From assembly GCF_900105735.1 (NCBI RefSeq), contig NZ_LT629793.1, forward strand, positions 62,001-126,000: DNA of 64,000 nt, read 5' to 3'. Below the pieces are notes generated by a model. It did no database searches. It was given only the letters and a program-made list of their open reading frames with translations, and had not been told where the DNA came from. Below, piece by piece: positions 162-18,212 of this stretch. Source of the stretch: Pseudomonas yamanorum. Its GTDB lineage: Bacteria > Pseudomonadota > Gammaproteobacteria > Pseudomonadales > Pseudomonadaceae. Within the stretch, counting starts at the first letter, position 1; every line of letters starts with the position of its first letter. The position numbers and the translations under genes were made by a program.

Positions 162-953
162 ATGCTTAAGTCATCGTATATTCCGGCCGTTGTGCTGGCG
201 GCTTCAGTGTTGCCTGCAATTTCGGCCCAGGCCGACAACGCCGATACCGCCAACAAGAGTAACAACCCGTTGAACCTCGCACCGGGTGCAAACCTGCAGG
301 ACTATTACACCCCGAAGTTATTCGACACTAACGCCCATACCAACGACATGCTCTTGCGCGGCACGCTGCCCGTTGCGCCCTCGGACTTCATTGGGGTGCC
401 ACAGCTGTTGCGCGCGACGTTGCCCATCAGCACACGTCCCGACCCCCACAGTGGCTACACCACCGGGATCGGCGACTTGAACCTGTTCGATATTTTCCTG
501 CTCAAGACCGAAGGCGTGCAGTTGGGCATCGGCCCGCAGATCACCGCGCCTACCGCCGAGCACGATGAACTGGGCACCGGCAAGTGGCAGGCCGGCCTGG
601 CGGCGGTGGCCATCGATGCCTCGCCCCGTGGCCTGCTCGGTGCTTTGGTGCAATACCAAAGCTCCTTCGCCGGCGACAGCGACCGCGCCCATGTGGAAAG
701 TGCCACTTTCCAACCGTTCATCATTCATAACCTGCCCAAGGGCTGGTACCTGCGCTCCACCGGCACCTGGACGTTTGACCTGAAAAACGACACCCGTTAC
801 ATCCCTATCGGTTTCGGTGCCGGCAAGGCCTGGAAATCCGGCAGCAATATCCTCAACGCCTATATCGAACCGCAGTGGACGGTCGCCCGCAAAGGCGATG
901 GCCTGCCGCAGTTCACTTTGTTTGCCGGGATCAACGTCACGTTCGGGAAATAA
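162..953 (+). CDS. Exported outer-membrane-type protein of unknown function
   Basis: A 263-residue protein. The frame opens at 90, but I place the start at the ATG at 162 because a GGGGAG ribosome binding site sits just upstream and the protein then begins with a clean signal peptide (about residues 1-24, cleavage after AQA). The mature part has many alternating polar and hydrophobic stretches and ends in a short strand (FAGINVTFGK), which suggests a beta-barrel. I do not recognise a specific family; it could be a small porin or transporter-like barrel. It is first in a run of same-strand genes, 9 bp before the DUF1254 gene, so it is probably co-transcribed with the envelope cluster that follows. 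Confidence 0.65.
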   Translation: MLKSSYIPAVVLAASVLPAISAQADNADTANKSNNPLNLAPGANLQDYYTPKLFDTNAHTNDMLLRGTLPVAPSDFIGVPQLLRATLPISTRPDPHSGYTTGIGDLNLFDIFLLKTEGVQLGIGPQITAPTAEHDELGTGKWQAGLAAVAIDASPRGLLGALVQYQSSFAGDSDRAHVESATFQPFIIHNLPKGWYLRSTGTWTFDLKNDTRYIPIGFGAGKAWKSGSNILNAYIEPQWTVARKGDGLPQFTLFAGINVTFGK

Positions 954-962
954 GGATATTTT

Positions 963-2408: not shown

Positions 2409-2420
2409 GGACGCAACAAC

Positions 2421-3821: not shown

Positions 3822-3879
3822 CGCCTGATCAAGTAGCACCGCTGCACCCTGACATCAGGCATTTACAAGGAGTAGAGCC

Positions 3880-4785
3880 ATGGTTTCACGTAGTCAACTG
3901 AGTGCGTTTACCGCTGCCACACTGGCACTGATGCCAGGGATAGGGTTTGCCGACAATGCCAGGGATTGGCAAAACACCCCGACGGATATGAATATGGTGT
4001 TCGGCTACTACAACCGGGTCGACACCAACACCCCGATCGACACGACATTGCCAATCAACGGTCTGTCGTTGGATGCCGACCTCTACCTGTTCCGCTACGC
4101 CCGTTCATTCGGCATCGACGGGCGCAACAGCGCCATCCAGTTTATCCAGCCTTACGCCGACGTTTCGGCGTCATTCGACAACGCCCAGTTTTTCAGCGGT
4201 ACCAAGCGCAACGGTGGTATGGGCGACACGCAGATTGTGTTCGCCCATAACATCTTCGGTGGCCCGGCACTGACCGCCGAGGAGTTCGCCAGCTGGAAAC
4301 CCGAGACGTTCCTCACCGGCGCGCTGTGGGTGACCATGCCCACCGGTGACTACGATAAAGACCGCATCATCAACATCGGCTCCAACCGCTGGGTGTTCAA
4401 GCCCGAACTGGGCTTCGGCACCCCGATTGGCCCGACCTGGCTGGAAATCAACACCTACGTGTCGCTGTTCGGCGACAACAAGGATTACCACGGCGATAGC
4501 AAGCTGGAACAAAAGCCGCTGTATGCCATCGAGGGTCACTACAGCTACACCATCAACCGCGCACTCTGGGTCTCGCTGGACGCCACCTACAACCGCGGCG
4601 GCGAAAGCAAGATTGATGGCGATTGGCAAGACAACAAACAGGAAAACGGCCTGCTGGGCGCCAGCCTGGGTTTTATGTTGTCACCCCAGTTTGGCGGCCT
4701 GATCGCCTATAACGACACGGTCTCCGAACGCACCGGTTCACCCGATGTGAACACCTGGACCTTCCGCCTGCAGTACGTCTGGTGA
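3880..4785 (+). CDS. Outer-membrane barrel protein, MetA-type phenol-degradation family
   Basis: A 301-residue exported protein with a signal peptide (about residues 1-24, ending GFA-D). The body has the repeated amphipathic strands and GALWVTMPTGDYD / GSNRWVFKPELGFG stretches typical of the family annotated as transporter or Phenol_MetA_deg. It ends in an aromatic residue (RLQYVW), as barrel proteins usually do. A strong AAGGAG lies 8 bp before the ATG. It probably forms an outer-membrane channel or lipid-facing barrel serving the neighbouring secreted DUF1254 proteins; the cargo is unknown. Confidence 0.75.
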   Translation: MVSRSQLSAFTAATLALMPGIGFADNARDWQNTPTDMNMVFGYYNRVDTNTPIDTTLPINGLSLDADLYLFRYARSFGIDGRNSAIQFIQPYADVSASFDNAQFFSGTKRNGGMGDTQIVFAHNIFGGPALTAEEFASWKPETFLTGALWVTMPTGDYDKDRIINIGSNRWVFKPELGFGTPIGPTWLEINTYVSLFGDNKDYHGDSKLEQKPLYAIEGHYSYTINRALWVSLDATYNRGGESKIDGDWQDNKQENGLLGASLGFMLSPQFGGLIAYNDTVSERTGSPDVNTWTFRLQYVW

Positions 4786-4817
4786 GAACCGCCTTCACGG
4801 AATGAACGGAGTGCGCC

Positions 4818-5567
4818 ATGTCCCGTATTCTTCTTGCGCGTTTAGTGCTCACCGGTGTGCTGCTCACCTCTCACACCGTTTTGGCCGACGAGCTGGAACC
4901 CAAGGCCCTCACTGCCCTGGAGCAGATGGGGGGCTACTTGCGCAGCCTGCAGCAGTTTCGCATCGATGCCCACAGCCATACCGACCAGGTGTTGGATAAC
5001 GGCCAGACCATCGAATTCAGCCATCAAACGCGCCTTGCGGCCATGCAGCCGGACAAGCTGCAAGTCTCGGTGGAAAGCGACGGCTCGCGCCGCAGCCTGT
5101 TCTACAACGGTAAAAGTTTCACCCTGTACGACAGCCGCAGCGGCTACTTCGCCAACCAGGCGGCGCCAGCGAATATCGGTGGCTTGCTCGATCAGTTGAG
5201 CGAACGCTACGGCATCGAACTGCCCCTGGCCGACCTGTTCCGCTGGAACCCCGGCACCGCCAAGGAGGTGGGCATCAGCAATGCCGTGCTGATCGGCAGT
5301 GAAACCATCGACGGCCAGACCTGCACCCATTACGCCTACCGCCAGCCGGATATCGACTGGCAACTGTGGGTTCGCCAAGGCTCGCAGCCACTGCCCTGCC
5401 GGCTGGTGATCAGCCGCCGGGACACCGCCGAACACCCAAGGCACAGCGTCAATTACCTGTGGCAACTCAACAGCCCGCCCAAACCTGCCGACTTTGAGTT
5501 CACTCCTCCGGCCGGCGCCCGTGCAGTGCCCCTGCAACAGTTGGAGCCTCAGGGAGAACAGCCATGA
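4818..5567 (+). CDS. DUF2092 periplasmic protein (LolA/LolB-like fold)
   Basis: A 249-residue protein with a signal peptide (about residues 1-23). The mature region matches the DUF2092 pattern: an early helix (LEPKALTALEQMGGYLRSL), beta strands carrying KLQVSVESDGSRRSLFYNGKSFTLYDS, then a late TPPAGAR stretch. Related proteins have a LolA/LolB-type lipoprotein-binding fold, so a lipid or lipoprotein shuttle role is possible but inferred. Its stop overlaps the next start (ATGA at 5564), a sign of translational coupling. Confidence 0.78.
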   Translation: MSRILLARLVLTGVLLTSHTVLADELEPKALTALEQMGGYLRSLQQFRIDAHSHTDQVLDNGQTIEFSHQTRLAAMQPDKLQVSVESDGSRRSLFYNGKSFTLYDSRSGYFANQAAPANIGGLLDQLSERYGIELPLADLFRWNPGTAKEVGISNAVLIGSETIDGQTCTHYAYRQPDIDWQLWVRQGSQPLPCRLVISRRDTAEHPRHSVNYLWQLNSPPKPADFEFTPPAGARAVPLQQLEPQGEQP

Positions 5568-6127
5568 AAAGCACAGCAGCGGTATTGACCGCGAGTTTGC
5601 TGCTGACGCTGTTCGATCCGCTGGCTGCCCAGGCCTGGCAACTGCGTGGCGGTGGTGGCGCACGGACGTTTGTGGTGCCCCATGGCGGCGGTGGCGGTTA
5701 CCGTCCTCCCATGCCCGCGCCCCACCCGATGCCGGCCCCCCGGCCGATGCCTCCACACCCGGAGCCGCACCCGCAGCCCCATCCTCAACCTGGGCCACAC
5801 CCCGAGCCTGGTCCGCATCCATATCCAGGACCGCGCCCCGGGCCACAACCGGGGCCGCATCCATACCCGATGCCGCCTCCTCCACCGCCGCCACCCCCTC
5901 CGCCGCCCCACGGGGATGACTGGTACCACCCATGGGCCACCGCCGCCGTGATCGGCGCGACCACGGCGACCGTCCTCGCCATCGGTACCCGCGTCACCAC
6001 GGTGCCGGTGGACTGTGTCTCGGTGGTCGCCAATGGCGTGGCCTATCAGCATTGCGGCCCCACCTGGTACCAGCCGCAATACGTCGGCAGCTCCGTGCAG
6101 TACATCGTGGTCGCCGCGCCCTGGTGA
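5564..6127 (+). CDS. Exported proline/histidine-rich protein
   Basis: A 187-residue protein with a signal peptide (about residues 1-24). Residues about 30-115 are a low-complexity tract of Pro, His and Gly (PHPEPHPQPHPQPGPHPEPG-like repeats, then a run of 14 prolines). A hydrophobic stretch with Gly/Ala/Thr (about 124-141) and a C-terminal part with VVANGVAYQHCGPTWYQPQY follow; that tail recalls small exported proteins of the DUF6515 type. The His/Pro tract could bind metal or span the periplasm. It overlaps the DUF2092 gene by 4 bp and is followed by moxR after 24 bp. Confidence 0.7.
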   Translation: MKSTAAVLTASLLLTLFDPLAAQAWQLRGGGGARTFVVPHGGGGGYRPPMPAPHPMPAPRPMPPHPEPHPQPHPQPGPHPEPGPHPYPGPRPGPQPGPHPYPMPPPPPPPPPPPPHGDDWYHPWATAAVIGATTATVLAIGTRVTTVPVDCVSVVANGVAYQHCGPTWYQPQYVGSSVQYIVVAAPW

Positions 6128-6151
6128 CCCACTGTTTCAAGGAGGATTGTG

Positions 6152-7126
6152 ATGACAGCGCTCAACGATTTAACCGCCCTGCAAGCCAGCATCGCCGAAA
6201 GTGTGCTGGGCCAGGATCAGGTCATCCGCCAGATCCTCATCGGCCTTTTGGCCAACGGTCACTTGCTGCTGGAGAGCTTGCCGGGCCTGGCCAAGACACG
6301 CACGGTCAAGGCCCTGGCCCGACACCTGGACGCGAAGATGAGCCGTATCCAGTTCACTCCCGACCTGCTGCCCTCGGACATCACCGGCGCCGAGGTGCTG
6401 CACCAGGTGGACGGCCAGAATCAGATCCGCTTCCAGCCAGGCCCCTTGTTCGGCAACCTGATCCTCGCCGATGAAATCAACCGCGCCCCGGCCAAGGTCC
6501 AGGCGGCTTTGCTGGAAGCCATGGAAGAACGCCAGATCACCGTGGCCGGCGCCAGCCATCCGCTGCCCGAGTTGTTTATCGTGGTCGCCACCCAGAACCC
6601 CATCGAACAGGAAGGCACTTATCCACTGCCGGAAGCACAGATGGACCGGTTCCTGATGAAAGTCCTGCTGGATTACCCCAGCGCCGAAAATGAAAGCCAG
6701 GTGCTGCGCCTGTTGCGCGAAGAAGAACAGCACGCCGCCGCAGCAACCACCCAAGGCTTCACCCTCGCCCCCGAGGTGATCTTCGCCGCCCGCAAGGAAG
6801 TCAGCGCGATCCAGGTGTCACCCGCTATCGACCGTTACCTGATCGACCTGATCAACGCCACCCGCCATCCCGCCGACTACGATGCCGACCTGGCGCGCTG
6901 GATCAGCCTTGGCGCCAGTCCCCGTGGCGGCATCGGCATGGACCGCGCGGCCCGCGCCGATGCCTGGCTGCGGGGCCAGGCCTTTGTGACGCCGGATAAC
7001 GTGCGCACGGTGGTGCATCCGGTGCTGCGTCACCGCCTGCAATTGAGCTACGACGCGGTGGCCGATAGCGTCAGCGCCGACCAGGTGCTGGACCGCCTGC
7101 TGGACAAAGTGGCGATTCCGGCATGA
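6152..7126 (+). CDS. MoxR-family AAA+ ATPase
   Basis: A 324-residue MoxR ATPase. I prefer the ATG at 6152 to the GTG at 6149 because GGAGGA (6141-6146) is then 5 bp away. The Walker A segment is ESLPGLAKT (about residues 41-49), Walker B is LADEINRAPAKVQ, and sensor 1 is VATQNPIEQEGTYPLPEAQMDRFL, all typical of MoxR. These cytoplasmic ATPases act as chaperones with VWA proteins, for example in cofactor loading or activation of envelope enzymes. Here it opens a MoxR-DUF58-DUF4381-VWA-VWA-BatD module, and its stop overlaps the next start by ATGA. Confidence 0.95.
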   Translation: MTALNDLTALQASIAESVLGQDQVIRQILIGLLANGHLLLESLPGLAKTRTVKALARHLDAKMSRIQFTPDLLPSDITGAEVLHQVDGQNQIRFQPGPLFGNLILADEINRAPAKVQAALLEAMEERQITVAGASHPLPELFIVVATQNPIEQEGTYPLPEAQMDRFLMKVLLDYPSAENESQVLRLLREEEQHAAAATTQGFTLAPEVIFAARKEVSAIQVSPAIDRYLIDLINATRHPADYDADLARWISLGASPRGGIGMDRAARADAWLRGQAFVTPDNVRTVVHPVLRHRLQLSYDAVADSVSADQVLDRLLDKVAIPA

Positions 7127-8058
7127 ACGCCGACGGCTTGGTCTACGTGTCCCTGGGGCAGTTGATGGCCCTGGAGTTTCAGACCCGTGGCCTGAGCTTT
7201 GTCGCGCGCCAGCCCCAAGGCAGCATCCTCGCCGGCAACCATGCCTCGCGGCTGCGCGGACGCGGCCTGAACTTTGATGAACTGCGCCGCTATCAGCCCG
7301 GCGATGATCTACGCCACCTGGACTGGCGCGCCTCTCTGCGCACCGGGAAACCGGTGATCCGTACCTTTACCGAGGAGCGCGACCGCCCCGCGCTGATTGT
7401 GGTCGACCAACGCATGTCGATGTTCTTCGGCTCGGTGCGCAGCTTTAAATCCGCTGTTGCCGCCGAGTTGGGCGCGTTGGCCGCGTGGATGGTGTTCAAC
7501 GCGGGTGACCGGGTGGGCGGGCTGGTGTTCAACGATGAGCACATCGACAGTGTGGCGCCGTTGCGCAGCCGCAAACGCGTCGAAACCTTGTGCAGCCGCA
7601 TCGTCCGACAGAACGCCGCGTTGAGCGCCGGCAACCCGGACCATGAAGCCGACGGCCAGCTCGACAAGGTGCTGCAACGTTGCCTCGCGCTGACCGGGCA
7701 TGACCACCTGATCTGCATCATCAGCGACTTCGCCGGGGCCGGTGACCGCACTCTGCAATTGATGCGGCAGCTGTCGGCGCACAACGATGTGGTTGCCCTG
7801 CAAGTCTACGACCCGCTGGCGTTGAACGTGCCGGATACCGGGCACCTGATGGTCACCCAGGGCCAATTGCAGGTCGAACTGGCTGTACAGAAACGCCAGG
7901 TACGCCAACCCCTGGGGGACTTTCTTGGCGGGCGCCTAAAGGACGTAGCCAGCCTGCTGCGCCGCAGCCAGGTGCCGCTGTTGATGATCAGCACGGCGCT
8001 GCCTGCAGTTGACCAACTGCGCGATGAGCTGGGCCGGCGCAATGGAGCGCGGCGATGA
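7123..8058 (+). CDS. DUF58 domain protein
   Basis: A 311-residue protein with the DUF58 signature at about residues 43-85: GRGLNFDELRRYQPGDDLRHLDWRAS followed by TGKPVIRTFTEERDRP. The rest has a VWA-like fold. DUF58 proteins accompany MoxR ATPases almost invariably, and the gene overlaps moxR and the next gene by 4 bp each (ATGA). It has no signal peptide, so it is expected to be a cytoplasmic or membrane-peripheral adaptor between the ATPase and the membrane VWA proteins. Confidence 0.92.
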   Translation: MNADGLVYVSLGQLMALEFQTRGLSFVARQPQGSILAGNHASRLRGRGLNFDELRRYQPGDDLRHLDWRASLRTGKPVIRTFTEERDRPALIVVDQRMSMFFGSVRSFKSAVAAELGALAAWMVFNAGDRVGGLVFNDEHIDSVAPLRSRKRVETLCSRIVRQNAALSAGNPDHEADGQLDKVLQRCLALTGHDHLICIISDFAGAGDRTLQLMRQLSAHNDVVALQVYDPLALNVPDTGHLMVTQGQLQVELAVQKRQVRQPLGDFLGGRLKDVASLLRRSQVPLLMISTALPAVDQLRDELGRRNGARR

Positions 8059-8522
8059 ACGCCAATGTGCCGAGCATCGAACAACTCAAGGAGCTAGGCC
8101 TGCCGGCGCCGGTCAGCTACTGGCCGCAGACCTGGGGCTGGTGGGTGATGCTCGGTTTGCTGGCGATTGCCCTGCTGGTGCTGGGCGTCCGCGCCTGGTT
8201 GCGCTGGCGCCGCAATGCCTATCGCCGCGAAGCATTGGCGCGCCTCAACGTGATCGAAGACTTGCGGGAGCTGCCGGAACTGCTCAAGCGCGTGGCCCTG
8301 TCGATGCCCCTCGCGCCGGAGGAACACCAACGCGTGCCGACCCTGAGCGGGGCCGACTGGCAGGCGTTCCTGCTGCGTCATGGCGGCATGGCGGTGCAGG
8401 AGGATTTCAGCCGTCAACTGGCGAGCCTGGCGTATGGATCAGCCGATATTTCCAGCGCGCAACGCGAACAGCTGTTGGCCCAGTGCAAAACCTGGGTGGA
8501 GCATCACCATGTGGCAACTTGA
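8055..8522 (+). CDS. DUF4381 single-span membrane protein
   Basis: A 155-residue protein with one membrane segment (about residues 29-48, WWVMLGLLAIALLVLGVRAW) followed by a basic stretch and a helical cytoplasmic tail. This is the DUF4381 arrangement found between DUF58 and BatA genes in MoxR/Bat operons. It overlaps DUF58 by 4 bp and the next gene by 14 bp, so production is tightly coupled. No catalytic motif is visible; a scaffold role is inferred. Confidence 0.85.
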   Translation: MNANVPSIEQLKELGLPAPVSYWPQTWGWWVMLGLLAIALLVLGVRAWLRWRRNAYRREALARLNVIEDLRELPELLKRVALSMPLAPEEHQRVPTLSGADWQAFLLRHGGMAVQEDFSRQLASLAYGSADISSAQREQLLAQCKTWVEHHHVAT

Positions 8523-9516
8523 TTATCCCTGGCTGCTGCTTCTCCTGCCGTTGCCGTGGCTCGCCTACCGTTACCTGCCGGAATACCGTGAAGCCCGCAG
8601 CGCCGTACGCGTGCCGTTTTTCGCCAGCCTCAGCCGGGCCGTGGGCCAGACGCCGGCCGCCAGCGGTATTCGCAGCAACCGCCTGCAACTGCTGCTCAAC
8701 CTGCTGGTGTGGGCGCTGCTGGTGCTGGCCATTGCCCGCCCGGTGTGGATCGAAAAACCCATCGAACGCCAACAGCCGGTGCGAGACCTGATGCTGGCCA
8801 TCGACATCTCGCAGTCCATGGAAACCCAGGACTTTACCGACGCCAACGGCCAGAAGATCAACCGCCTGGCCGCCGTCAAACAGGTGGTGCATGGCTTTAT
8901 CCAGCGCCGCAAGGACGACCGTATCGGCCTGATCCTGTTTGGCAGCGGCGCCTATCCCCAGGCGCCATTGACCCTGGACCACACCAGCCTGTCGCTGCTG
9001 CTGGATGACAGCGGCATCGGCATGGCCGGGCCCAACACCGCAATTGGCGATGCCATTGGCCTGAGCCTGAAGCTGCTGGACCAGGCTCATGAACAAGAGA
9101 AGGTGCTGATACTGCTCACCGACGGCAACGACACCAGCAGCGCGATTCCGCCCGACCATGCGGCGTCCATGGCAGCGGCCAAGGGCGTGGTGATTCATAC
9201 CATCGGCATTGGCGATCCGGGCGCTTCAGGTGAGTCAAAGGTCAACCTGAGCGCGCTGCAACAGATTGCTGAAACCACCGGCGGACGGTATTTCCGGGCG
9301 GAGAACCGCGACACCCTGGACCAGGTCTACGCCACCCTCGACCAGATCACCCCCCACCAGGTGAAAACCCTGAGCCACCAGCCCAAGCGTGATCTGTTCT
9401 GGATACCACTGGCGGCCGCCATCGGCCTGCTCGCGCTGTATCACCTGATCGCCGCGTTGTGGCCGCATCCGGGGCTGCGCCATCGGGAGGTCCGCGATGG
9501 AGTTCAACCTCAGTGA
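8509..9516 (+). CDS. VWA domain membrane protein (BatA-like)
   Basis: A 335-residue protein starting at the ATG at 8509, inside the end of the previous gene. It has an N-terminal hydrophobic segment (about 7-20), a second one (about 59-77), then a von Willebrand A domain with an intact MIDAS DISQS (D99, S101, S103) and the later LTDGNDTSS loop. A C-terminal membrane span lies at about 305-325. This is the BatA layout: a periplasm-facing VWA domain tethered by membrane helices. It overlaps the next VWA gene by 20 bp. Confidence 0.92.
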   Translation: MWQLDYPWLLLLLPLPWLAYRYLPEYREARSAVRVPFFASLSRAVGQTPAASGIRSNRLQLLLNLLVWALLVLAIARPVWIEKPIERQQPVRDLMLAIDISQSMETQDFTDANGQKINRLAAVKQVVHGFIQRRKDDRIGLILFGSGAYPQAPLTLDHTSLSLLLDDSGIGMAGPNTAIGDAIGLSLKLLDQAHEQEKVLILLTDGNDTSSAIPPDHAASMAAAKGVVIHTIGIGDPGASGESKVNLSALQQIAETTGGRYFRAENRDTLDQVYATLDQITPHQVKTLSHQPKRDLFWIPLAAAIGLLALYHLIAALWPHPGLRHREVRDGVQPQ

Positions 9517-10996
9517 CTTCCATTTCCTGCGCCCGGCCTGGCTGCTGCCGGGTTTGCTTGGCCTATTGCTGCCGCTGTTGTGGCGCCGCAGCAAGGACCT
9601 GCAACGACGGATGCGGGGCAATATTGCCCCGCATCTGTTGCCGCATCTGCTGCTGACTCCGACGGACCCCCATCGCCTGCGGCCGGTGCATCTGGTCAGC
9701 GCCTTGCTGGTTCTCGGCGCACTGGCCAGTGCCGGGCCCACCTGGGAACAGGATCGCCCCGACTTCCTGGAGAACCGCGCGCCGCTGATCATCGCCCTCG
9801 ACCTGTCACCATCAATGGACACCGCTGACGTGCCGCCAACCCGCCTGCAAGCCGCCAAGCACAAGTTGCAAGACCTGGTGCAGCGTCGCCAAGGCGCGCG
9901 CACCGCGTTGATGGTGTATGCCGGCAGCGCGCATCTGGTATTGCCGCCGACGGACGACCCGGCATTGCTCGACAGTTTTATCCAGGCCCTGGCCACCGAC
10001 CTGATCAGCAAGCCCGGGCGGGATGTCGCCGGGGTGATCGACCAGTCCAAGCGTTTGCTTACGGCGGAAAACGCCTCTGGTAGCCTGTTGCTGATCACTG
10101 ACGGCGTCGATCTCGCGCAGTTGCCGCAGCTCAAGCAACACTTGGCGGACAGCCCGCTACAGGTGCTGGTACTGGCGGTCGGCGTGAACTTCGATGCCGG
10201 CGCCTTGAAGCAACTCGCTTCGGCCACCGACGCGCCGCTGGGCAGCCTGACCCTCAACGATGATGACCTGGACTGGGTTGAACTCCATGCCCAACAGCAC
10301 TTCCAGAACGCCGACGAACAACAGCGCAACCTGCAATGGAAAGATGCCGGTTACTGGCTGTGCTGGCCGCTGCTGCTGTTGGCGTTTTTCAGTGTACGCC
10401 GGGGCTGGAGCCTGAACTGGGTGGCGGTGCTGGTGCTGGGGGTATTCCTGCAACCCGCGCCTGTCGAAGCCAACGCGCTGACCGACGCGTTCTTCACCCG
10501 CGACCAACAAGGCCGCTGGGCCTTCGAACACCATCACTACCCCGCCGCTGCAGGGCTGTTTGTCGACCCCTATTGGAAAGGCATTGCCGCGTACAACGCT
10601 GCCGACTACGACCTGGCCCTGGCGACCTTTGCCCAACTCGACACCGCACAGACCGCGTTCTACCGCGGCAATATCCACGTGCGTCGCTTCAAGTTCGACG
10701 ATGCCATTGCCGCCTACCAGCAGGCGTTGCAACAACAGCCGCAGTTTCCCGAAGCCAGCGCCAACCTGGCCCTGGCTCTGGCGCTGAAGAAAGACACTGA
10801 AAACGCCTCGGACAATGCCCCCGAGGTGAAGCCCGACGCGGTCAAGTTCGACAAGGCGGCCGGCAAGGGCAAGAGCAAGGCAATCCAGACAGAACAGGCA
10901 AGCAACGATGCGTTGTGGTTGCAGAACCTGACGACGTCCCCCGCGAACTTCTTGCGCCGCAAGTTCAGCCTTCAAGACCAGGGAGCCCAGCCATGA
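9497..10996 (+). CDS. VWA plus TPR membrane protein (BatB/BatC fusion-like)
   Basis: A 499-residue protein with two N-terminal membrane segments (about 14-28 and 64-80), a VWA domain with MIDAS DLSPS (D102, S104, S106) and LLITDGVD, two more membrane spans (about 287-325), then TPR-like helices (about 355-430) with [24 protein letters not shown] lysine-rich tail follows. It combines the BatB VWA domain and the BatC TPR domain in one chain. It overlaps batD by 4 bp (ATGA at 10993). Confidence 0.9.
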
Positions 10997-12042
10997 ACCG
11001 GCTCTGCTGGCTGTTGCTGCTGATCGCCGGCCCGTTGTGGGCGGCCGAACCGCAACTGCGAGTGCAGGCGCAACTGGTGCCCGGTAGTAACGTGGTGGTG
11101 GGCGAGCAAGTGCAATTGCAGGTCGATGTGTTGACCGACACCTGGTTCACCGCGGCCGCCGGCCTGCCGCCGCTGCAACTGCCCGGCGCGCGGGTGCAGG
11201 CGCCGGGCAGTGAGTCCGAGCATGTGAACCAGGTGATCGAGGGCAAGACCTTCTATGGCATGCGTTACCGCTATCGCATCACCCCTTCCTTGGCTCAGAC
11301 GTTCAACATTCCGGCCCTGACGGTGCAGGCCCAGCCCGGCCAGGCGAGCGCGCCGTTGAGTGCGCAAACTGCACCGTTGTCCTTCCAGGCCGCCCAGCCG
11401 CCGGGTTTCGAACCCGGGGAAACCGTGTTGGTGGCTGACGGGCTACGCCTGACCCAAACGGTCACCACCACACCGCTCAAGGTCGGCGACACCCTCACCC
11501 GCACGGTCATCCTGCAAGCCGACAACACCCCCGGCCTGTCACTGCCGCCACCTGACCAGGCCCAGGTAAAAGGCCTGCGTCGCTACCCGCAGTCGCCGGT
11601 CATCGGCAACCTGGATGATGGCCGCGGCAACATCAGCGGCGGCCAACGCATCGACCGGCAGGTGTACCGCGTCGAGCAAGCCGGTCGCTACCCGCTGCCC
11701 GCCATCAGCGTGAAATGGTGGGACAGCCGCAACCATCGGCTGCAAGTGACGCGCGTGCCGGAAGTCACCGTCGAGGCGCAGGCAGCAAGCGCCTACAGCC
11801 CGACATTTTCCATCGCCGAGGACCTCAAGCAACTCGGCCAGCACAGCCGCTGGCAACTATCACGGCAGGGCGTGGCCTGGGGCGCTGCCTTGGTGTTGTG
11901 GGTACTGGCCGCGTACCTCGCGCACGGCCTATGGCCACGAGTTCCGCCTCTGTGGCGACGCGGCTGCGGTGCGTTGCGCTGGCGGTTTCGTCGGCTACGC
12001 TTGCTACCACTGAACCCCCGTCGCGAAAAGGATTTCCCATGA
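10993..12042 (+). CDS. BatD-like exported protein
   Basis: A 349-residue protein. The frame opens earlier, but the ATG at 10993 overlaps the previous stop and gives a proper signal peptide (about residues 1-17, ending LWA-A). The exported part has Ig-like strands, such as [29 protein letters not shown], and ends with a membrane helix (about 295-315) and an Arg-rich cytoplasmic tail. That is the BatD (oxygen tolerance) layout, though shorter than many BatD proteins. It closes the MoxR/Bat module and overlaps the HAD gene by 4 bp. Confidence 0.83.
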
Positions 12043-13040
12043 CGTCCCTCCGTTCTGTCTTGCCCCTTCTGCTGCTGATAAGCCTGCCTGCGCTGGCGGC
12101 GGACCCGCTGCCCTCATGGAACGAAGGACCGAGCAAGAAACACATCATCGAATTCGTCCAGGCCGTGACCGCCGAGGGCTCCAGGGACTATGTAAAACCC
12201 GCCGAACGCATCGCCGTATTCGATAACGACGGTACCCTCTGGACCGAACAGCCGGCTTACTTCGAGGTACTGTTTGCCTTCGACGAAATCAAGCGCCTCG
12301 CCCTCCAGCATCCCGATTGGAAAACCACCCAGCCGTTCAAGGCCGTGCTCGAGAACGATCACCAGGCCCTGGCCCAAAGCGGCATGGAAGGCTTGCTGAA
12401 AATCATCGGCGCGACCCATACCGGCATCACCACCGACGCCTTTATCGACAACGCCAAAACCTGGCTCACCCAGGCCCGTCATCCGAAAACCGGCAAGCCC
12501 TACACCGAAATGATCTACCAGCCGATGCTGGAGATGCTCGACTACCTGCGCAGCCAGCAATTCAAGACCTACATCGTTTCCGGCGGGGAAACTGCCTTCA
12601 TGCGCGCCTTTGCCGAGGTGGTCTACGGCGTGCCACCGGAACAGGTGATCGGCTCCAACTTCGTCACCGCGTTCCAGATCAAGGATGGCGCCCCGCAGGT
12701 CCTGCGCACCGCCAAGCTCGCCCACAACGATGACGGCCCGGGCAAGCCGGAAAGTATCGACTCGATCATTGGCCGCCGACCGATCCTGGCCTTCGGCAAC
12801 TCCGACGGCGACCTGCAAATGCTCCAGTGGACAGCCGCCGGCCAGGGCAAACGCTTCATGGGCCTGGTGCACCACACCGACGCCAAGCGCGAGTGGGCAT
12901 ATGACCGCAATTCTCAGATCGGGCGCCTGGACAAGGCGCTGGATGAAGCCAGGACAAAAGGCTGGACCGTGGTGGACATGGCAACCGAGTGGAAGCGCAT
13001 CTACCCGTTCGAGCCGGCTGTGCAACAACAGGTGCAATAA
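12039..13040 (+). CDS. Periplasmic HAD-superfamily phosphatase
   Basis: A 333-residue protein starting at the ATG at 12039 (ATGA overlap with batD), which gives a signal peptide [23 protein letters not shown] motif I is FDNDGTLW (Asp nucleophile plus general acid), motif II is IVSGGE, and motif IV is GNSDGDLQM. The fold is that of a phosphoserine-phosphatase-like HAD enzyme, here exported. The substrate is unknown. Coupling to the Bat module and position before a sulfatase suggest that the cluster handles phosphate and sulfate esters in the periplasm. Confidence 0.87.
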
Positions 13041-13116
13041 GAAAAGACGTCGCGATGGACTGTAATAAACGTTGGTCGCAGGCAATGCGACTCAAGCCGA
13101 GAAAGGAGCAAGTCAT

Positions 13117-14703
13117 ATGACTCGCCTACGCAAGTGGCTGCCGAAACTCGCCCTGGTGGCGGTATCGGTTATGGGGGTCTCGGCATCAGCCTGGGCCGCC
13201 GACAAGCCGAATATCCTGGTGATATTCGGCGATGACATTGGGCAAACCAACATCAGCGCCTATTCGATGGGCGTGGTGGGTTACAAAACCCCGAATATCG
13301 ACCGCATCGCCAAGGAAGGCATGCTGTTCACCGACTACTACGCGGAGAACAGTTGCACCGCCGGGCGCTCATCCTTTATCACAGGCCAGACGCCGTTGCG
13401 CACTGGCCTGTCCAAGGTGGGCATCCCGGGTGCGCCGGTGGGCCTGCAAAAACGTGATATCACCATTGCCCAGGCGCTTAAAGGGCTGGGCTATTCCACC
13501 GGGCAATTCGGCAAGAACCACCTGGGGGACAAGGATGAATACCTGCCCACCAACCACGGGTTCGATGAGTTCTTCGGCAACCTGTACCACCTCAATGCCG
13601 AAGAAGAGCCGGAGCGCCCGTACTGGCCCAAGGATGATGCCGAGTTCGTCAAGGCCAACACCCCGCGCGGTGTGATCCACAGCTTCGCCGATGGCAAGAT
13701 CGAAGACACCGGTGCGTTGACCGCCAAACGCATGGAAACCATCGACGACGAAACCACCGCCGCCGCCCAGGCGTTCATCAAGAAACAGGCCGAAGCCAAC
13801 AAGCCGTTCTTCGTGTGGATGAACACCACGCGCATGCACGTGTTCACTCATGTGCGTGACTCGATGAAGGGCCAGAGCGGCATGCCCGGCAACGAGTACG
13901 CCGACGGCATGCTGGAGCACGACGCCGATGTGGGCAAACTCCTGCAAACCCTCGACGACCTGAAAATCGCCGACAACACCATTGTGGTCTACACCACCGA
14001 CAACGGGCCGAACCAGTTCTCGTGGCCGGATGCGGCCACCACGCCGTTCCGCAACGAGAAAAACTCCAACTGGGAAGGCGCGTACCGGGTGCCGGCGATC
14101 ATCCGCTGGCCAGGCAAGATCAAGCCTGGGGAAGTTTCCACCGAAATGGTCTCGGGCATGGACTGGTTCCCTACCCTGCTGGCCGCTGCGGGTGATGCGG
14201 ACGTGAAAGACAAGCTGCTCAAGGGCTGGGCCCCGACGGCCGGCGGCAGCAGCTTCAAGGTGCACCTGGACGGTTACAACCAACTGCCCTACCTGACTGG
14301 CCAGCAACCCAAAGGCGCGCGTAACGAGTTCTTCTACTTCAACGACGATGGCGTGCTGGTAGCCGTGCGTTTCGACAACTGGAAAGTGGTGTTCGCCGAA
14401 CAGCGCCAGCCGGGCGGTTTCCGGGTGTGGAGCGAGCCGTTCGTGCAACTGCGGGTACCGAAGATCTTCAACCTGAGGATGGACCCGTATGAACGGGCGG
14501 ACGTGGTGTCTGACCAGTACTACGACTGGAGCACCAAAAACGTCTACCTGGGTGCAGTGGCGGTGACCAAATCGGCGAAGTTCCTCGAGACGTTCATCGA
14601 GTACCCGCCGAGCCAGAAACCGGCCAGCTTCAGCATTGACCAGATCCGCGAAGCCGTGGACAAGAAGATTGCTGAAAAAATGAAGGCTAACCCGGCGCAA
14701 TAG
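13117..14703 (+). CDS. Periplasmic type I sulfatase (arylsulfatase family)
   Basis: A 528-residue enzyme starting at the ATG at 13117 behind AAAGGAG. The signal peptide (about 1-27) ends SAWA-A. Metal-binding acids lie in LVIFGDDIGQ (D39, D40) and YTTDNGPN. The modification site is C80-T-A-G-R84, with an NSC/TAGRSS context, so Cys80 is expected to become formylglycine. The usual Pro of CxPxR is Ala here. The family hydrolyses sulfate (or sometimes phosphonate) esters; no formylglycine-generating enzyme is encoded in this window. It lies 76 bp after the HAD gene. A hairpin (14709-14732) and a REP palindrome lie just downstream. Confidence 0.93.
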   Translation: MTRLRKWLPKLALVAVSVMGVSASAWAADKPNILVIFGDDIGQTNISAYSMGVVGYKTPNIDRIAKEGMLFTDYYAENSCTAGRSSFITGQTPLRTGLSKVGIPGAPVGLQKRDITIAQALKGLGYSTGQFGKNHLGDKDEYLPTNHGFDEFFGNLYHLNAEEEPERPYWPKDDAEFVKANTPRGVIHSFADGKIEDTGALTAKRMETIDDETTAAAQAFIKKQAEANKPFFVWMNTTRMHVFTHVRDSMKGQSGMPGNEYADGMLEHDADVGKLLQTLDDLKIADNTIVVYTTDNGPNQFSWPDAATTPFRNEKNSNWEGAYRVPAIIRWPGKIKPGEVSTEMVSGMDWFPTLLAAAGDADVKDKLLKGWAPTAGGSSFKVHLDGYNQLPYLTGQQPKGARNEFFYFNDDGVLVAVRFDNWKVVFAEQRQPGGFRVWSEPFVQLRVPKIFNLRMDPYERADVVSDQYYDWSTKNVYLGAVAVTKSAKFLETFIEYPPSQKPASFSIDQIREAVDKKIAEKMKANPAQ

Positions 14704-14708
14704 CCGCC

Positions 14709-14732
14709 GGCGCCGCGCTTATGGGCGGCGCC
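14709..14732 (+). terminator. Hairpin after the sulfatase gene
   Basis: An 8-bp perfect stem (GGCGCCGC / GCGGCGCC, arms 14709-14716 and 14725-14732) with an 8-nt loop begins 5 bp after the sulfatase stop. There is no T-run, so it is a weak terminator or a transcript-end stabiliser. Confidence 0.45.
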
Positions 14733-14738
14733 TAACCC

Positions 14739-14766
14739 GTGGCGAGGGAGCTTGCTCCCTCGCCAC
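14739..14766. repeat. REP palindrome
   Basis: A perfect 13-bp inverted repeat, GTGGCGAGGGAGC and its complement, with a 2-nt centre. It matches a REP core that is common in pseudomonad intergenic regions. It lies between the sulfatase gene and the next + strand gene, so the operon probably ends or is attenuated here. Confidence 0.85.
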
Positions 14767-14799
14767 ACTTTGATCGGTATTTCCATAAGGCTATCTGCA

Positions 14800-17292
14800 A
14801 TGTCGTCACGCACCGCCAGCAAACCTGCCGCACTGGCTCACACCTCAACCACCCTGATCCCCGCCCTGCTGCTGTTCATCTCCGGCATGGCTGCCCTGGT
14901 GTACCAGGTGTTGTGGATCAAGCAATTGTCGCTGGTCGTGGGGGTGGAGGTGTACGCCATCACCACCGGCATCAGCGCGTTTTTTGCCGGGTTGGCGTTG
15001 GGTGGCCTGCTGTTCGGACGCTGGGCGGATCGCTTGTCGCGACCGCTGCTGCTGTATGCAATCCTCGAAATCCTTGTCGCCGTGCTCGGCATGGGTGCCA
15101 CAGTCGCCTTGAGCATGGCCGCCAGCCCGTTTGCCTGGTTGGAACAACAGGTCGGCCTGCTGGCCTGGGTACTGCCGTTTGTGCTGGTGGGCATCCCGGC
15201 GCTGTTGATGGGCGGCACCTTGCCGGTGCTGGTGCGCTCGCTGCACATCGACCCCAAGGCCCTCGGTCAGGCCGGTGGCCGCTTGTATGCGGCCAACACC
15301 GCCGGGGCAATTGCCGGGACCTTGCTGACCGCCTTTGTGCTGATCGCTACGTTCGGCGTGCGTGGCAGTGCCCTGGTGGCCGCGATGCTCAACCTGCTGG
15401 CTGCCGTCGGCGCGCTGTTGTATGTGCGGCATCACACCACCACGGTAATCAACCATGCCAACGGCGCCAAACCGGCGCGCCTGGCCCTGGTGCTGTACGC
15501 CATTGCCGGCGGCGTGGCCTTGGGTTACGAGGTGGTGTGGTCGCAATCCATCGTGCAGTTCATGAGCACCCGCACCTATGCGTTTGCCGTGGTGCTCGCC
15601 ACTTACCTGGCGGGGTTGTTTATCGGCAGCCAGTTGATGGCGCGGCGGGTCGAGCGGATCCGTGATCCATGGGGCGTGTTCGGCCTGTTGATTGCCGGCG
15701 CCGGGCTCGTGGCGTTGCTGGAGATCGCCCTGCTGGGCCGCTGGCTGGTACTGCTGCAAACCCAGGCCGAATCCCTGGTGCTGAGCCTGGGCGGCGCTGA
15801 ACTGCCGGGCATGAGCGCGCGCTTTGCGGTGGCCGCCCTGTGCATCGTGTTTGTGCCAACCCTGTTGCTCGGCGCGGCGTTTCCCCTGGCCTTGCGCTTG
15901 AGCGTGGGCAGCGAGCACGTGGGCCGGGATGTCGGAGCCGTAGTGGCGTTCAACACCCTGGGCGGCATTGTCGGGGTGATGTTGTGTGGTTTTGTGCTGA
16001 TTCCCTGGCTCGGGCTGGTACGTACCCTGGGCTTGCTCGCGGTGATTGCCGGCGTCGTGGGGTATCTGGCCGCGCGCCGAGGCCACGGGGTCAAGAAAGG
16101 CCGGCGTCAGGCCGTGGTCGCCCTCGGTTTACTGTCTCTGGCCGTGGCGTTGCTGAACCCGGTGGATCGACTGGCCAAGCTGCTGCCCGGGGCACGTAAT
16201 GCGAGCCTGGCGTTTTACCAGGAAGGACGCGGCGCCACCGTCGCTGTGGTCACCCAGGGCCAAGGCGCCCGCAGCTTTCAACGCCTGTATATCCAGGGCG
16301 TGTCCAACACTGGCGACGCCATGCCGTCCCTGCGCTATATGCGGATCCAGGCGCTGTTGCCGCTGCTGATCCATAACGGCGAGCCCCGCTCGGCGTTGGT
16401 GATCGGCTTTGGCACCGGAATTACCGCCGGGGCGTTGCTGCGCTATCCCGGGCTGGAACACCGGGTGGTTGCCGAGTTGCTGCCATCGGTGATCCAGGCG
16501 GCGCCACTGTTCAAGGGCAACTTCAACGCGGCCAGTGATCCAGGGGTGGACGTGCGCCTGCGAGACGGTCGCCAGGAACTGCTGCGCAACCCGCAGGCGT
16601 ACGACCTGATCACCCTCGAACCGCCACCGCCCTCCGCTGCCGGCGTGGTCAACCTGTATTCCCGTGACTTCTACCAACTGGCCGCCCGGCGCCTGGAGAA
16701 AAACGGCCTGCTGGCCCAATGGCTGCCGCTGCCAACGCAAAACATCGAGGACTCGCAGTCACTGGTACGCAGCTTCCTCGACGTGTTCCCCTACGCGACG
16801 CTGTGGACCAGCGAGTTCCACGAAATGCTGCTGGTGGGTTCCATGGAACCCATCGAGCTGGATGCCACGCGGATTCGCCAGCGCTTTGAGCAACCGAACG
16901 TGAGCAGCGCCCTGGGGGAAGTGGGCATCGATTCGGCGGCAACCCTGCTCGCCACCTGGGTCACGGATCGCCAGGGCCTGGAGCGCTTTGCAGGCAATGC
17001 GTTGCCAGTCACCGATGACCAACCGCGTATCGAATATGCGCCGTGGGTGCGCAGCAAGGAGATCACCCGGGTGCTCCCGGCGCTCCTGGATCTGCGGGTG
17101 CCCGCGCCATTGCTGAATGCGGACCCGGCGTTCACCCGTACCCTGGCCAGCGAACAGCAGCGCCTAATGCAGTTCTACCGCGCCAGCCTGCATGCCTATG
17201 ACGGCGATCGCACCGCCTGGGGCCGGGATATCCAGGCGGTGTTGCAACAAGACAGCGCCAACCCTTATTACCGCTGGTTCATCGGCCAGTAG
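14800..17292 (+). CDS. Membrane-fused spermidine-synthase-like protein
   Basis: An 830-residue protein. I choose the ATG at 14800 because ATAAGG precedes it and the upstream extension from 14752 begins inside the REP. The first half (about residues 20-440) is a polytopic membrane domain with many hydrophobic helices (LLLFISGMAALVYQVLWIKQL onward). The second half (about 490-720) is a Rossmann methyltransferase-like domain with VIGFGTGITAGAL and YDLITLEPPPPSAAG. In true spermidine synthases this last loop carries a catalytic Asp; here it is LEPPPP, so polyamine synthesis is doubtful. Similar fusions are annotated as fused MFS/spermidine synthase with unknown substrate. It may belong functionally with the sulfatase cluster. 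Confidence 0.82.
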   Translation: MSSRTASKPAALAHTSTTLIPALLLFISGMAALVYQVLWIKQLSLVVGVEVYAITTGISAFFAGLALGGLLFGRWADRLSRPLLLYAILEILVAVLGMGATVALSMAASPFAWLEQQVGLLAWVLPFVLVGIPALLMGGTLPVLVRSLHIDPKALGQAGGRLYAANTAGAIAGTLLTAFVLIATFGVRGSALVAAMLNLLAAVGALLYVRHHTTTVINHANGAKPARLALVLYAIAGGVALGYEVVWSQSIVQFMSTRTYAFAVVLATYLAGLFIGSQLMARRVERIRDPWGVFGLLIAGAGLVALLEIALLGRWLVLLQTQAESLVLSLGGAELPGMSARFAVAALCIVFVPTLLLGAAFPLALRLSVGSEHVGRDVGAVVAFNTLGGIVGVMLCGFVLIPWLGLVRTLGLLAVIAGVVGYLAARRGHGVKKGRRQAVVALGLLSLAVALLNPVDRLAKLLPGARNASLAFYQEGRGATVAVVTQGQGARSFQRLYIQGVSNTGDAMPSLRYMRIQALLPLLIHNGEPRSALVIGFGTGITAGALLRYPGLEHRVVAELLPSVIQAAPLFKGNFNAASDPGVDVRLRDGRQELLRNPQAYDLITLEPPPPSAAGVVNLYSRDFYQLAARRLEKNGLLAQWLPLPTQNIEDSQSLVRSFLDVFPYATLWTSEFHEMLLVGSMEPIELDATRIRQRFEQPNVSSALGEVGIDSAATLLATWVTDRQGLERFAGNALPVTDDQPRIEYAPWVRSKEITRVLPALLDLRVPAPLLNADPAFTRTLASEQQRLMQFYRASLHAYDGDRTAWGRDIQAVLQQDSANPYYRWFIGQ

Positions 17293-17337: not shown

Positions 17338-18006
17338 TCAGCGTTTCAGCTTCAGATACGACTGGTGCAGGTCCGACGCCCAACCGTCGATCACGCTTTT
17401 CACGTCATCGGCCTTCATCACCTGGGAGTCGTTCGACAACGGCTTGCCGGTGCCTTTACGCACGACCTGGGCGATTACCTTGCCACTGTCGCCATCGAGG
17501 AACTGGGCCTCGGTGCCCAGGGTGGTTTCCTGGTCACGAATCCCGGTACCGGTGCTGACTGCAGCGGCCACCAGCGCTACAGGAATGTACTCATACGGCT
17601 TGAGGCTTTCGGTCTTGCTGCTGACTGCCGTGATGGCCGCCCGTACTACAATCACGCCCGGGCCAGGCCCGTTGGCCAGTGGCAGGGACTTTTCCAGCTC
17701 GCGCTTGAGCGCCTGGTTGTAGTAGGTGTTGATGCCCTGCAAGGTGCTTTCAGGAATCCTGGTGGTGGCTTGTGGCTTGGGGTAGAACTGGGTGGGCTCG
17801 ATATACACGGCGGTATAACGGCTCAGGTTCAGGTTGGGGTCCACCCAGCGCATCACGTCAGCGCCTGAGGGGGACTTGGCTTCCTTCAGGTTGCTGTAGT
17901 CGGAGAGAAACCCGGAATACTCGTCCGGCTGCGTCACCTTGCTGGAACACCCCATCACCCCGATCGAGGCAATGCACACCGTGCCGATCATTAGTCCTAG
18001 CTTCAT
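17338..18006 (-). CDS. DUF3313 lipoprotein
   Basis: A 222-residue putative lipoprotein. On the minus strand GGGAG lies 7 bp before the ATG at 18006, so I prefer it to the TTG two codons upstream. The signal peptide ends in a lipobox VMGC. The mature part has the DUF3313 pattern: YSGFLSDYSNLKE, then MRWVDPNLNLSRYTAVYIEPTQFYP. The family is annotated only as an outer-membrane-anchored lipoprotein of unknown role. It is convergent to the envelope cluster and divergent from the cytochrome gene. Confidence 0.85.
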   Translation of the reverse strand: MKLGLMIGTVCIASIGVMGCSSKVTQPDEYSGFLSDYSNLKEAKSPSGADVMRWVDPNLNLSRYTAVYIEPTQFYPKPQATTRIPESTLQGINTYYNQALKRELEKSLPLANGPGPGVIVVRAAITAVSSKTESLKPYEYIPVALVAAAVSTGTGIRDQETTLGTEAQFLDGDSGKVIAQVVRKGTGKPLSNDSQVMKADDVKSVIDGWASDLHQSYLKLKR

Positions 18007-18212
18007 CGTCAAACTCCCTGGCTGTCATCGAAGGAACGTTGAGCTGTAGGTATAGCCAACTCTGGGAAAATAACCCGGTAGCCGTTGCAGGTTGTGGGGC
18101 ATTTCACAGCGACTTTTCTATTTGAATTTGACAGGCAAGCACCCAGCGTCAAAGCTGCACGGAGCTTAAGCGCGCCATTAGAGCGTCAACGCATCGGACA
18201 TCGGAAGTCGTA

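What the first reader, a model, noticed from the sequence alone, without database searches (positions are those of the whole stretch)
162..17292. A long envelope gene block built around a MoxR/Bat chaperone module
Seen: about fifteen consecutive + strand genes, many overlapping by 4 bp, in which the MoxR-DUF58-DUF4381-VWA-VWA/TPR-BatD module sits between secreted DUF1254, barrel and DUF2092 proteins on one side and a periplasmic HAD phosphatase and sulfatase on the other. Known: MoxR-VWA pairs act as chaperones or activators of client proteins. Inferred: the clients are encoded in the same block, so the whole may be one undescribed periplasmic enzyme-maturation or ester-scavenging system.
Basis: partly seen in the sequence, partly recalled or inferred. 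Interest (0 to 1): 0.75.

Follow-up and report, generated by a model that had tools for sequence, protein, structure and literature searches.

The report
MoxR/Bat chaperone clade paired with sulfatases
This bacterium, a Pseudomonas by its nearest relatives, carries beside an exported sulfatase its own version of a widespread but poorly understood bacterial membrane chaperone machine, and in other bacteria this version usually sits with the same kind of sulfatase, which suggests what the machine works on.

Summary
In detail: fifteen + strand genes (162-17292), five of 14 junctions overlapping by 4 bp, contain a complete MoxR-DUF58-DUF4381-VWA-VWA/TPR-BatD module. Of 122 MoxR/Bat module loci examined, 14 lie beside a relative of this sulfatase and 108 do not, so Bat modules in general are independent of it. 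But the sulfatase-linked modules form one clade: 54 modules, support 100/100, 51 with the sulfatase; 92 modules outside have no sulfatase, HAD, FGE, spermidine-synthase-like or multihaem cytochrome/TPR hit above my thresholds. The link survives changed order and strand. In 13 genomes, 0 of 80 other sulfatases lie within 10 kb of a DUF4381 gene. The window genome's second Bat module lies outside the clade. DUF1254/DUF2092/barrel genes are a variable side. Best reading: a dedicated, trans-envelope MoxR/VWA machine that activates exported sulfatases at a step other than formylglycine formation, since it occurs with FGE, with anSME and with neither. Activation itself is inferred. I found no paper reporting the link.

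The parts
162..953 (+). secreted protein, no Pfam match, labelled Barrel1; variable part of the block
   Evidence: ORF and signal-like N terminus; no Pfam match; 77-87% identical relatives in L046, L069, L075
963..2408 (+). DUF1254/DUF1214 protein a; variable part
   Evidence: Pfam; one of only two DUF1254 matches in the genome
2421..3821 (+). DUF1254/DUF1214 protein b; variable part
   Evidence: Pfam; solved relatives VPA0106 (3u07) and VPA0735 (2p3y)
3880..4785 (+). outer-membrane-type protein, Phenol_MetA_deg family; variable part
   Evidence: Pfam
4818..5567 (+). DUF2092 periplasmic protein; variable part
   Evidence: Pfam
5564..6127 (+). His/Pro-rich secreted protein without a Pfam family
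   Evidence: no match; relatives beside DUF2092 in L067, L077, L080, L130, L158
6152..7126 (+). MoxR AAA+ ATPase of the sulfatase-linked clade
   Evidence: AAA_3 8.8e-62; clade support 100/100
7123..8058 (+). DUF58 protein, predicted cytoplasmic
   Evidence: Pfam; no TM segment
8055..8522 (+). DUF4381 membrane protein with one TM segment
   Evidence: Pfam; hydropathy
8509..9516 (+). membrane-anchored VWA protein with MIDAS-type motif, VWA predicted periplasmic
   Evidence: Pfam; DxSxS and TDG patterns in 50 of 50 clade members scored; charge pattern
9497..10996 (+). membrane-anchored VWA/TPR protein
   Evidence: VWA_2 and TPR; TM segments
10993..12042 (+). BatD-type protein, predicted periplasmic with C-terminal anchor
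   Evidence: BatD Pfam; TM and positive 37-aa tail
12039..13040 (+). exported HAD-type hydrolase, DNDGT motif intact
   Evidence: Pfam; solved relative 4ovy E 2.2e-108; motif
13117..14703 (+). exported type I sulfatase, CTAGR motif; proposed client
   Evidence: PF00884 4.1e-52; invariant columns
14800..17292 (+). 12-TM protein fused to a spermidine-synthase-like domain (SpdS)
   Evidence: NF037959 over its cut-off; 12 TM segments; beside the sulfatase in 27 of 46 named loci with the module and 2 of 34 without
17338..18012 (-). DUF3313 protein, opposite strand, recurrent neighbour in Pseudomonas
   Evidence: Pfam
   Evidence: Pfam; 7 CXXCH; a relative lies between sulfatase and MoxR in several Vibrionaceae loci

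Best explanation
Genes 6152-14703 encode a specialised MoxR/Bat machine and its client. MoxR (cytoplasmic AAA+ ring) and DUF58 use ATP; DUF4381 anchors them to the inner membrane; two membrane proteins hold VWA domains in the periplasm together with TPR and BatD. The machine engages the exported sulfatase (and perhaps the HAD protein) through the VWA metal site and remodels it, most likely for metal loading, folding or assembly into a membrane-held complex that includes the spermidine-synthase-like or the multihaem cytochrome/TPR protein. It does not itself make the formylglycine. Shown: gene content, the clade, the long-lived link to this sulfatase family, the sulfatase and VWA1 motifs. Inferred: topology (hydropathy, charge, one published homologue), direct contact, the activation step.
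For: (1) One clade of 54 MoxR/Bat modules, UFBoot/SH-aLRT 100/100, holds all 51 sulfatase-linked rows of a 147-row tree; the 92 modules outside it have no sulfatase, HAD, FGE, SpdS or CytTPR hit above threshold. (2) Not dependent on the sulfatase as anchor: in 249 Pseudomonadota genomes, 16 of 43 sulfatases of this family (13 of 23 genomes) lie within 10 kb of a DUF4381 gene; random placement predicts 0.27. (3) Specific: in 13 genomes with a linked module, 16 of 25 sulfatases of this family but 0 of 80 other PF00884 sulfatases lie within 10 kb of DUF4381. (4) The link survives rearrangement: of 51 clade loci with both genes, the sulfatase is on MoxR's strand and downstream in 14, upstream in 30, upstream and between MoxR and VWA1 in 2, and on the opposite strand in 5; it reaches Bacteroidota and Calditrichota. 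(5) The second Bat module of the same genome (L010) is outside the clade. (6) The VWA domain of a Bat-type homologue, Borrelia BB0173, faces the periplasm (PMC5700661, abstract and passages); charge patterns agree here. (7) MoxR/VWA or MoxR-like proteins are known to act on one enzyme's active site: NorQD (PMC13036017, passages), CoxD (PMC2997495, passage).
Against: The sulfatase often stands without the module: 34 of 80 named loci show no MoxR in the DNA held, of which 20 have at least 8.8 kb on both sides and 14 are cut shorter, one of them (L079) inside the module. On the sulfatase tree nearness to the module changes 25 times, close to shuffled labels (mean 28.8). Genomes G204, G221 and G311 have the sulfatase and no clade module, so the sulfatase can do without it. 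Co-divergence does not discriminate: sulfatase vs linked module r 0.90, vs the core module r 0.85, 9 genomes. In G353 the module kept the cytochrome/TPR gene while the sulfatase lies about 94 kb away, so the cytochrome could be the client. No expression, binding or activity data. In NorQD the VWA partner works on the MoxR ring itself, whereas here the VWA domains are predicted on the other side of the membrane.
Confidence: 0.5

Rival explanations
1. The module's client is not the sulfatase but the membrane partner: the 7-haem cytochrome/TPR protein or the 12-TM spermidine-synthase-like protein. The sulfatase is a fellow member of the pathway. This would match MoxR systems that mature respiratory complexes.
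For: In the 80 named loci CytTPR occurs in 25 of 46 with the module and 1 of 34 without, SpdS in 27 of 46 and 2 of 34 (one of the two, L079, is a contig cut inside the module); FGE shows no such preference, 15 of 46 and 10 of 34. In L224 the module keeps CytTPR beside it and has no sulfatase near.
Against: Neither is constant: of 54 clade modules 25 have SpdS, 22 CytTPR, 39 at least one, against 51 with the sulfatase (the sulfatase count is inflated because most loci were found through it). Pseudomonas and Vibrionaceae dominate the counts.
Confidence: 0.22
2. A catabolic or stress island that moves as a unit: the Bat copy rides along with sulfatase, HAD and FGE for shared regulation or transfer, without touching the sulfatase.
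For: Patchy distribution (23 of 249 genomes have the sulfatase family); sulfatase loci with HAD or FGE and no Bat module in view (12 and 10 of 34); clade spread over three phyla.
Against: Order and strand change while the association stays, and on the module's tree the linked rows are one clade with three unlinked rows inside, which passive hitch-hiking does not predict.
Confidence: 0.18
3. The module is a third formylglycine-making system for sulfatases in genomes that lack FGE and anSME.
For: The window genome (one contig, completeness given as 100) has no anSME-model match, no FGE relative at E 1e-15, and its three FGE-domain proteins lack the cysteine pair, yet its sulfatase is Cys-type CTAGR with conserved active-site columns. 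0 of 16 Pseudomonadaceae genomes tested have FGE at that threshold and 1 of 16 has anSME over the cut-off.
Against: 13 of the 16 have weaker matches to the anSME model (12 of them near E 1e-31 or better), which could be maturases. The clade also occurs with FGE (17 of 54) or anSME (4 of 54) in the locus and with Ser-type STAGR sulfatases. The control E. coli genome gave no DUF4381 match, but E. coli converts P. aeruginosa sulfatase to 95% formylglycine (table in PMC6189696, passage). Absence of FGE/anSME does not significantly favour the module (18 of 20 vs 8 of 12, Fisher p 0.17). G286 and G184 have neither maturase by these cut-offs, no clade module, and an uninterrupted CTAGR sulfatase.
Confidence: 0.07

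Closest known systems
MRP-type MoxR/Bat modules (Bacteroides aerotolerance bat operon; Borrelia BB0170-BB0176; Leptospira bat); the subfamily name MRP is recalled
   Same: MoxR, DUF58, membrane VWA proteins, TPR and BatD together (PMC5700661 and PMC3557215, passages); VWA in the periplasm for BB0173
   Different: Forms a clade apart from the core module of the same genome (L010) and is tied to a sulfatase; the passages read name no client for Bat modules, and PMC3557215 calls Bat function elusive
NorQ/NorD metal insertase of nitric oxide reductase
   Same: MoxR-type ATPase with a VWA partner acting on one enzyme (PMC13036017, passages)
   Different: NorD is one protein whose VWA contacts the NorQ ring; here two membrane VWA proteins predicted to face the periplasm, plus DUF58, DUF4381, BatD; proposed client is an exported hydrolase
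CoxD (CO dehydrogenase active-site maturation)
   Same: MoxR-like ATPase with a predicted role in introducing sulfur and copper into an active site (PMC2997495, passage)
   Different: Acts on a molybdoenzyme; Bat proteins are not part of that system (recalled)
Type I sulfatase with FGE or anSME maturation
   Same: (C/S)xAxR sulfatase; FGE in 17 and anSME in 4 of 54 clade loci
   Different: The window genome has neither enzyme at the thresholds used

Membership tests
MRP-type MoxR/Bat module | MoxR AAA+ ATPase (AAA_3) with lid domain | tested here: met
   PF07726 8.8e-62, PF17863 1.1e-17; profile hit to solved chain 2r44. A strict Walker A pattern (GxPGxxKT) matches 36 of 54 clade members; the window has S for the first G
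MRP-type MoxR/Bat module | adjacent DUF58, membrane VWA proteins, TPR, BatD | tested here: met
MRP-type MoxR/Bat module | VWA domains with MIDAS motif facing the periplasm | tested here: inconclusive
   both patterns present in VWA1 of 50 of 50 clade members scored, in VWA2 of 25 of 52; topology from hydropathy and charge only, supported by BB0173
Core Pseudomonas Bat module | falls with the Bat modules that other Pseudomonadaceae carry | tested here: not met
   window is in the sulfatase-linked clade; L010, L172, L174, L176, L181, L184, L186, L190 group elsewhere (clade also)
Type I (formylglycine) sulfatase, PF00884 | (C/S)x(P/A)xR motif and metal-site residues | tested here: met
   CTAGR; D39, D40, K133, H135, D295, N296 invariant in 9 aligned sequences; which of them bind metal is recalled
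Type I (formylglycine) sulfatase, PF00884 | formylglycine present, sulfate ester hydrolysed | not testable with these tools
   needs mass spectrometry and assay
FGE/anSME-matured sulfatase | FGE with cysteine pair, or anSME, in the genome | tested here: not met
   that the cysteine pair is catalytic is recalled
NorQD-like metal insertase | VWA partner on the same side of the membrane as the ATPase ring | tested here: inconclusive
   charge pattern puts VWA1 and VWA2 in the periplasm, a prediction only; DUF58 is the cytoplasmic candidate
NorQD-like metal insertase | inserts metal into a client | not testable with these tools
   inference only

The most novel reading that the evidence does not exclude
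This clade is a dedicated ATP-driven sulfatase-activation machine that works across the inner membrane on sulfatases after export; in Pseudomonas, where FGE was not found and anSME mostly not, it also takes part in making the formylglycine, with the 7-haem cytochrome handling the electrons, and so is one of the missing sulfatase-maturation systems.
Probability: 0.08. Interest if true: 0.9.

Novelty: new variant of a known kind. Interest (0 to 1): 0.62.

Why it matters
Bat-type MoxR modules are widespread, but their function has stayed open (PMC3557215, of 2012, calls it elusive; passage). A clade tied for a long time to one enzyme family gives a concrete, assayable client: an exported sulfatase whose activity, metal and formylglycine can be measured in a deletion strain. 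It also points to Pseudomonas genomes with Cys-type sulfatases in which neither FGE nor anSME was found, a test bed for the unsolved third route of sulfatase maturation (Benjdia et al. 2007, seen only as a reference in PMC6189696).

Tried and rejected
Rejected: whole block as one system. DUF1254 is in 2 of 16 module-bearing Pseudomonadaceae loci and recurs in scattered fashion elsewhere.

Rejected as a test: co-divergence of sulfatase and module, which did not separate the linked from the core module.

Weak: absence of FGE/anSME against presence of the module (p 0.17). I assigned the 20 and 12 genomes by hand, 32 of 33 searched; G299 was left out because its sulfatase match has an internal stop; G298's partial FGE hit (E 1e-17) was counted as absent, G181's partial hit (E 7e-37) as present; G046 was counted as having the module from its VWA/BatD part.

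Led nowhere: promoter scan (0 sites); PDB sequence searches for sulfatase, HAD, CytTPR and DUF1254 gave families but no substrate. Structure prediction and the large protein search were not used.

Limits. The 80 named loci are the best 80 of 545 confirmed stretches and were found through the sulfatase, so 51 of 54 overstates the link. In the DUF4381 census 17 modules fall to the clade and 14 of them are linked; of these 14, 11 are in the tree, L147 in that, and L059 and L061 were never put in a tree. Of the 108 unlinked loci 95 are in the tree; 13 had no usable MoxR row or were dropped. Four DUF4381 matches over the cut-off were not fetched (G140 twice, G301, G170), and many contigs end close by. 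Thresholds drop weak hits: outside the clade FGE-like hits of 28-29% identity in L169, L183, L201 and CytTPR hits in L170 and L239 were not counted. Before the trees I dropped eleven Pseudomonas loci (L068-L072 in part, L075, L076, L079, L082, L094, L103), then also L111, L122, L147, L253, L258; several Pseudomonadaceae loci were not entered. The careful tree used LG+G4 without the mixture model; treekit warned of long branches (among them L154, L124, L149, and L272 meeting the outgroup L009) and uneven composition. A pattern error made useless for the motif count; it was redone.
Full report
What is in the window. The genes are real and in the stated order: 162-953 (label Barrel1), two DUF1254/DUF1214 proteins, a Phenol_MetA_deg barrel, DUF2092, a His/Pro-rich secreted protein, MoxR, DUF58, DUF4381, VWA1, VWA2/TPR, BatD, HAD, sulfatase and a 12-TM protein fused to a spermidine-synthase-like domain, here SpdS. 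Five of 14 junctions overlap by exactly 4 bp. Beyond a DUF3313 gene on the other strand lies a membrane-anchored protein with seven CXXCH motifs and TPR repeats, here CytTPR (18213-20465). Upstream, a divergent sensor-kinase gene begins 16 bases outside the window (L008).

The genome has two complete Bat modules. AAA_3 searching finds three strong MoxR genes in the 7.09 Mb, single-contig genome. One (L010) leads a second complete module, MoxR 52% identical; another (L009) is a MoxR-DUF58 pair.

Sulfatase to module. A search of 119 family genomes found close sulfatase orthologues (77-80% identical) in 13 genomes besides the window's own, none of them among the 12 other genomes of its genus in that sample. 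Of 20 regions fetched around orthologues and more distant relatives, 15 carry MoxR with the module, one more (L065) the VWA/BatD part at its cut end, and the four others (L047, L051, L056, L063) are extra sulfatase copies of genomes that have a linked one. A scan of named genomes gave the best 80 of 545 loci, from Pseudomonas, Burkholderiales, Rhizobiales, Rhodobacterales, Vibrionaceae, Shewanella, Bacteroidota, Calditrichota and others (order names recalled); MoxR with DUF58 or VWA1 lies in 46 of 80, plus L079 where the contig ends inside the module. Order and strand vary; in Ralstonia L102 and Cupriavidus L104 the sulfatase and SpdS lie between the VWA half and MoxR-DUF58.

Module to sulfatase. 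Anchoring on DUF4381 instead, 121 of 249 Pseudomonadota genomes have a match, 109 over the cut-off; 23 of the 249 have this sulfatase family at E 1e-100. 16 of 43 sulfatases in 13 of 23 genomes are within 10 kb of a DUF4381 gene against 0.27 expected at random. I looked at 122 of the 126 module loci over the cut-off: 14 linked, 108 not. So most Bat modules are free of the sulfatase.

One clade. A tree of concatenated MoxR, DUF58 and VWA1 (147 rows, careful IQ-TREE, outgroup L009) puts all 51 linked rows in one clade of 54 with support 100/100; the three others inside are L255 (genome G329, whose sulfatase match begins 180 bases from the end of another contig), L224 (G353, sulfatase about 94 kb away) and L213 (G350, no sulfatase at E 1e-100). 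Four changes of the label suffice, against 42.6 in shuffles. Scanning all rows for the block's genes gives, in the clade, sulfatase 51, HAD 34, SpdS 25, CytTPR 22, FGE 17, anSME 4 of 54; outside, 0 of 92 for every one of them above the thresholds (weak hits below them are listed under Tried and rejected). The window's second module L010 is outside, with the other Pseudomonadaceae core modules in the 112-row tree.

Asymmetry. On the sulfatase tree (125 sequences, 108 scored) nearness to the module changes 25 times, hardly fewer than in shuffles (mean 28.8). The module of this clade usually has a sulfatase of this family beside it; the sulfatase does not need a neighbouring module. This is what an accessory factor of an enzyme family could look like, but it also shows that the enzyme can occur without it. 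Specificity control: in 13 genomes, 16 of 25 sulfatases of the family and 0 of 80 other PF00884 sulfatases lie within 10 kb of DUF4381.

What else belongs. In the 80 named loci CytTPR and SpdS go with the module (25 of 46 vs 1 of 34; 27 of 46 vs 2 of 34), HAD less so (33 of 46 vs 12 of 34), FGE not at all (15 of 46 vs 10 of 34) (related loci are not independent, so the p-values are too small). DUF1254, DUF2092 and the barrels are a variable side: DUF1254 in 2 of 16 module-bearing loci of the Pseudomonadaceae set. In the 16 named Pseudomonas loci with the module, 9 show DUF1254 although only about 2-3 kb upstream of MoxR was held, so it is common in that group.

Formylglycine. The window genome has no anSME-model match and no FGE relative at E 1e-15; its three FGE-domain proteins lack the cysteine pair that the FGE of L101 shows (that the pair is catalytic is recalled). 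0 of 16 Pseudomonadaceae genomes tested have FGE at that threshold, and only G107 has anSME over the cut-off, though 13 of 16 have weaker matches to that model. Yet the window's sulfatase is Cys-type with conserved active-site columns. In other clade loci FGE or anSME is inside the block, and two sulfatases there have serine (STAGR; L154 and L116, both with anSME within 6 kb). The module is therefore indifferent to how formylglycine is made, which argues that it acts at another step. The control E. coli genome has no DUF4381 match, yet E. coli makes 95% formylglycine in P. aeruginosa sulfatase (table in PMC6189696, passage), so a route exists that does not need this module.

Mechanism. DUF58 and MoxR have no TM segment; DUF4381 has one; VWA1 and VWA2 have positively charged stretches (7 K/R) before the TM segment that precedes the VWA part, which puts VWA in the periplasm; BatD has a signal-like start and a C-terminal anchor followed by 37 residues with 11 positive charges. 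BB0173 of Borrelia, a Bat-type VWA protein, was shown with its VWA in the periplasm (PMC5700661, abstract and passages). ATP use inside and client handling outside, on an exported sulfatase, follow as inference. Precedents for MoxR-type ATPases acting on one enzyme's active site are NorQD (PMC13036017) and CoxD (PMC2997495), both read as passages only.

Literature. In the held library, 4 papers contain both MoxR and sulfatase and 4 contain MoxR and formylglycine. I opened two of these: the passage in PMC7159879 concerns conflict systems and those in PMC2997495 molybdoenzymes. I did not open the rest (PMC8195603, PMC12839542, PMC10907252, PMC9736018); I saw their listings only. A five-term search gave none, and a search for DUF1254 or DUF1214 gave 6 papers, listing only. 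Subscription papers, including the MoxR reviews by Snider and Houry and by Wong and Houry (seen only as references), were not read, so prior notice of the link cannot be excluded.

Noticed in passing
window genome, L013, L014, L015: Pseudomonas-type genome with eight PF00884 matches, three FGE-domain proteins that all lack the cysteine pair, no FGE relative at E 1e-15 and no anSME-model match: how formylglycine is made here is unexplained.
   Followed up: partly
window 14800-17292: The spermidine-synthase-like domain reads DLITLEPPPPSAAG where, from recall, true spermidine synthases have a catalytic D in a DSSDP-type motif; it may not be an aminopropyltransferase.
   Followed up: no
window 5564-6127 and L067, L077, L080, L130, L158: His/Pro-rich secreted protein without a Pfam family, beside DUF2092 in these loci.
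   Followed up: no
L154 (genome G310) and L149 (genome G180): An anSME gene lies between MoxR and the sulfatase; the L154 sulfatase is Ser-type.
   Followed up: partly
L148, L150, L116, L137: Loci with two to four sulfatases of the family around one Bat module, some on opposite strands.
   Followed up: no
window 20576-22408: Beta-lactamase-family (PF00144) serine hydrolase gene downstream of the cytochrome/TPR gene.
   Followed up: no
L008 1-10000 (upstream of the window): KaiC-like ATPase, three histidine kinase genes (one a 1133-aa CHASE3-GAF hybrid kinase read away from the block) and CheB; a possible regulator next door.
   Followed up: no
genomes G286 and G184 (L160, L161): Uninterrupted CTAGR sulfatases of the family in genomes with no FGE at E 1e-15, no anSME over cut-off and no clade Bat module.
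   Followed up: partly
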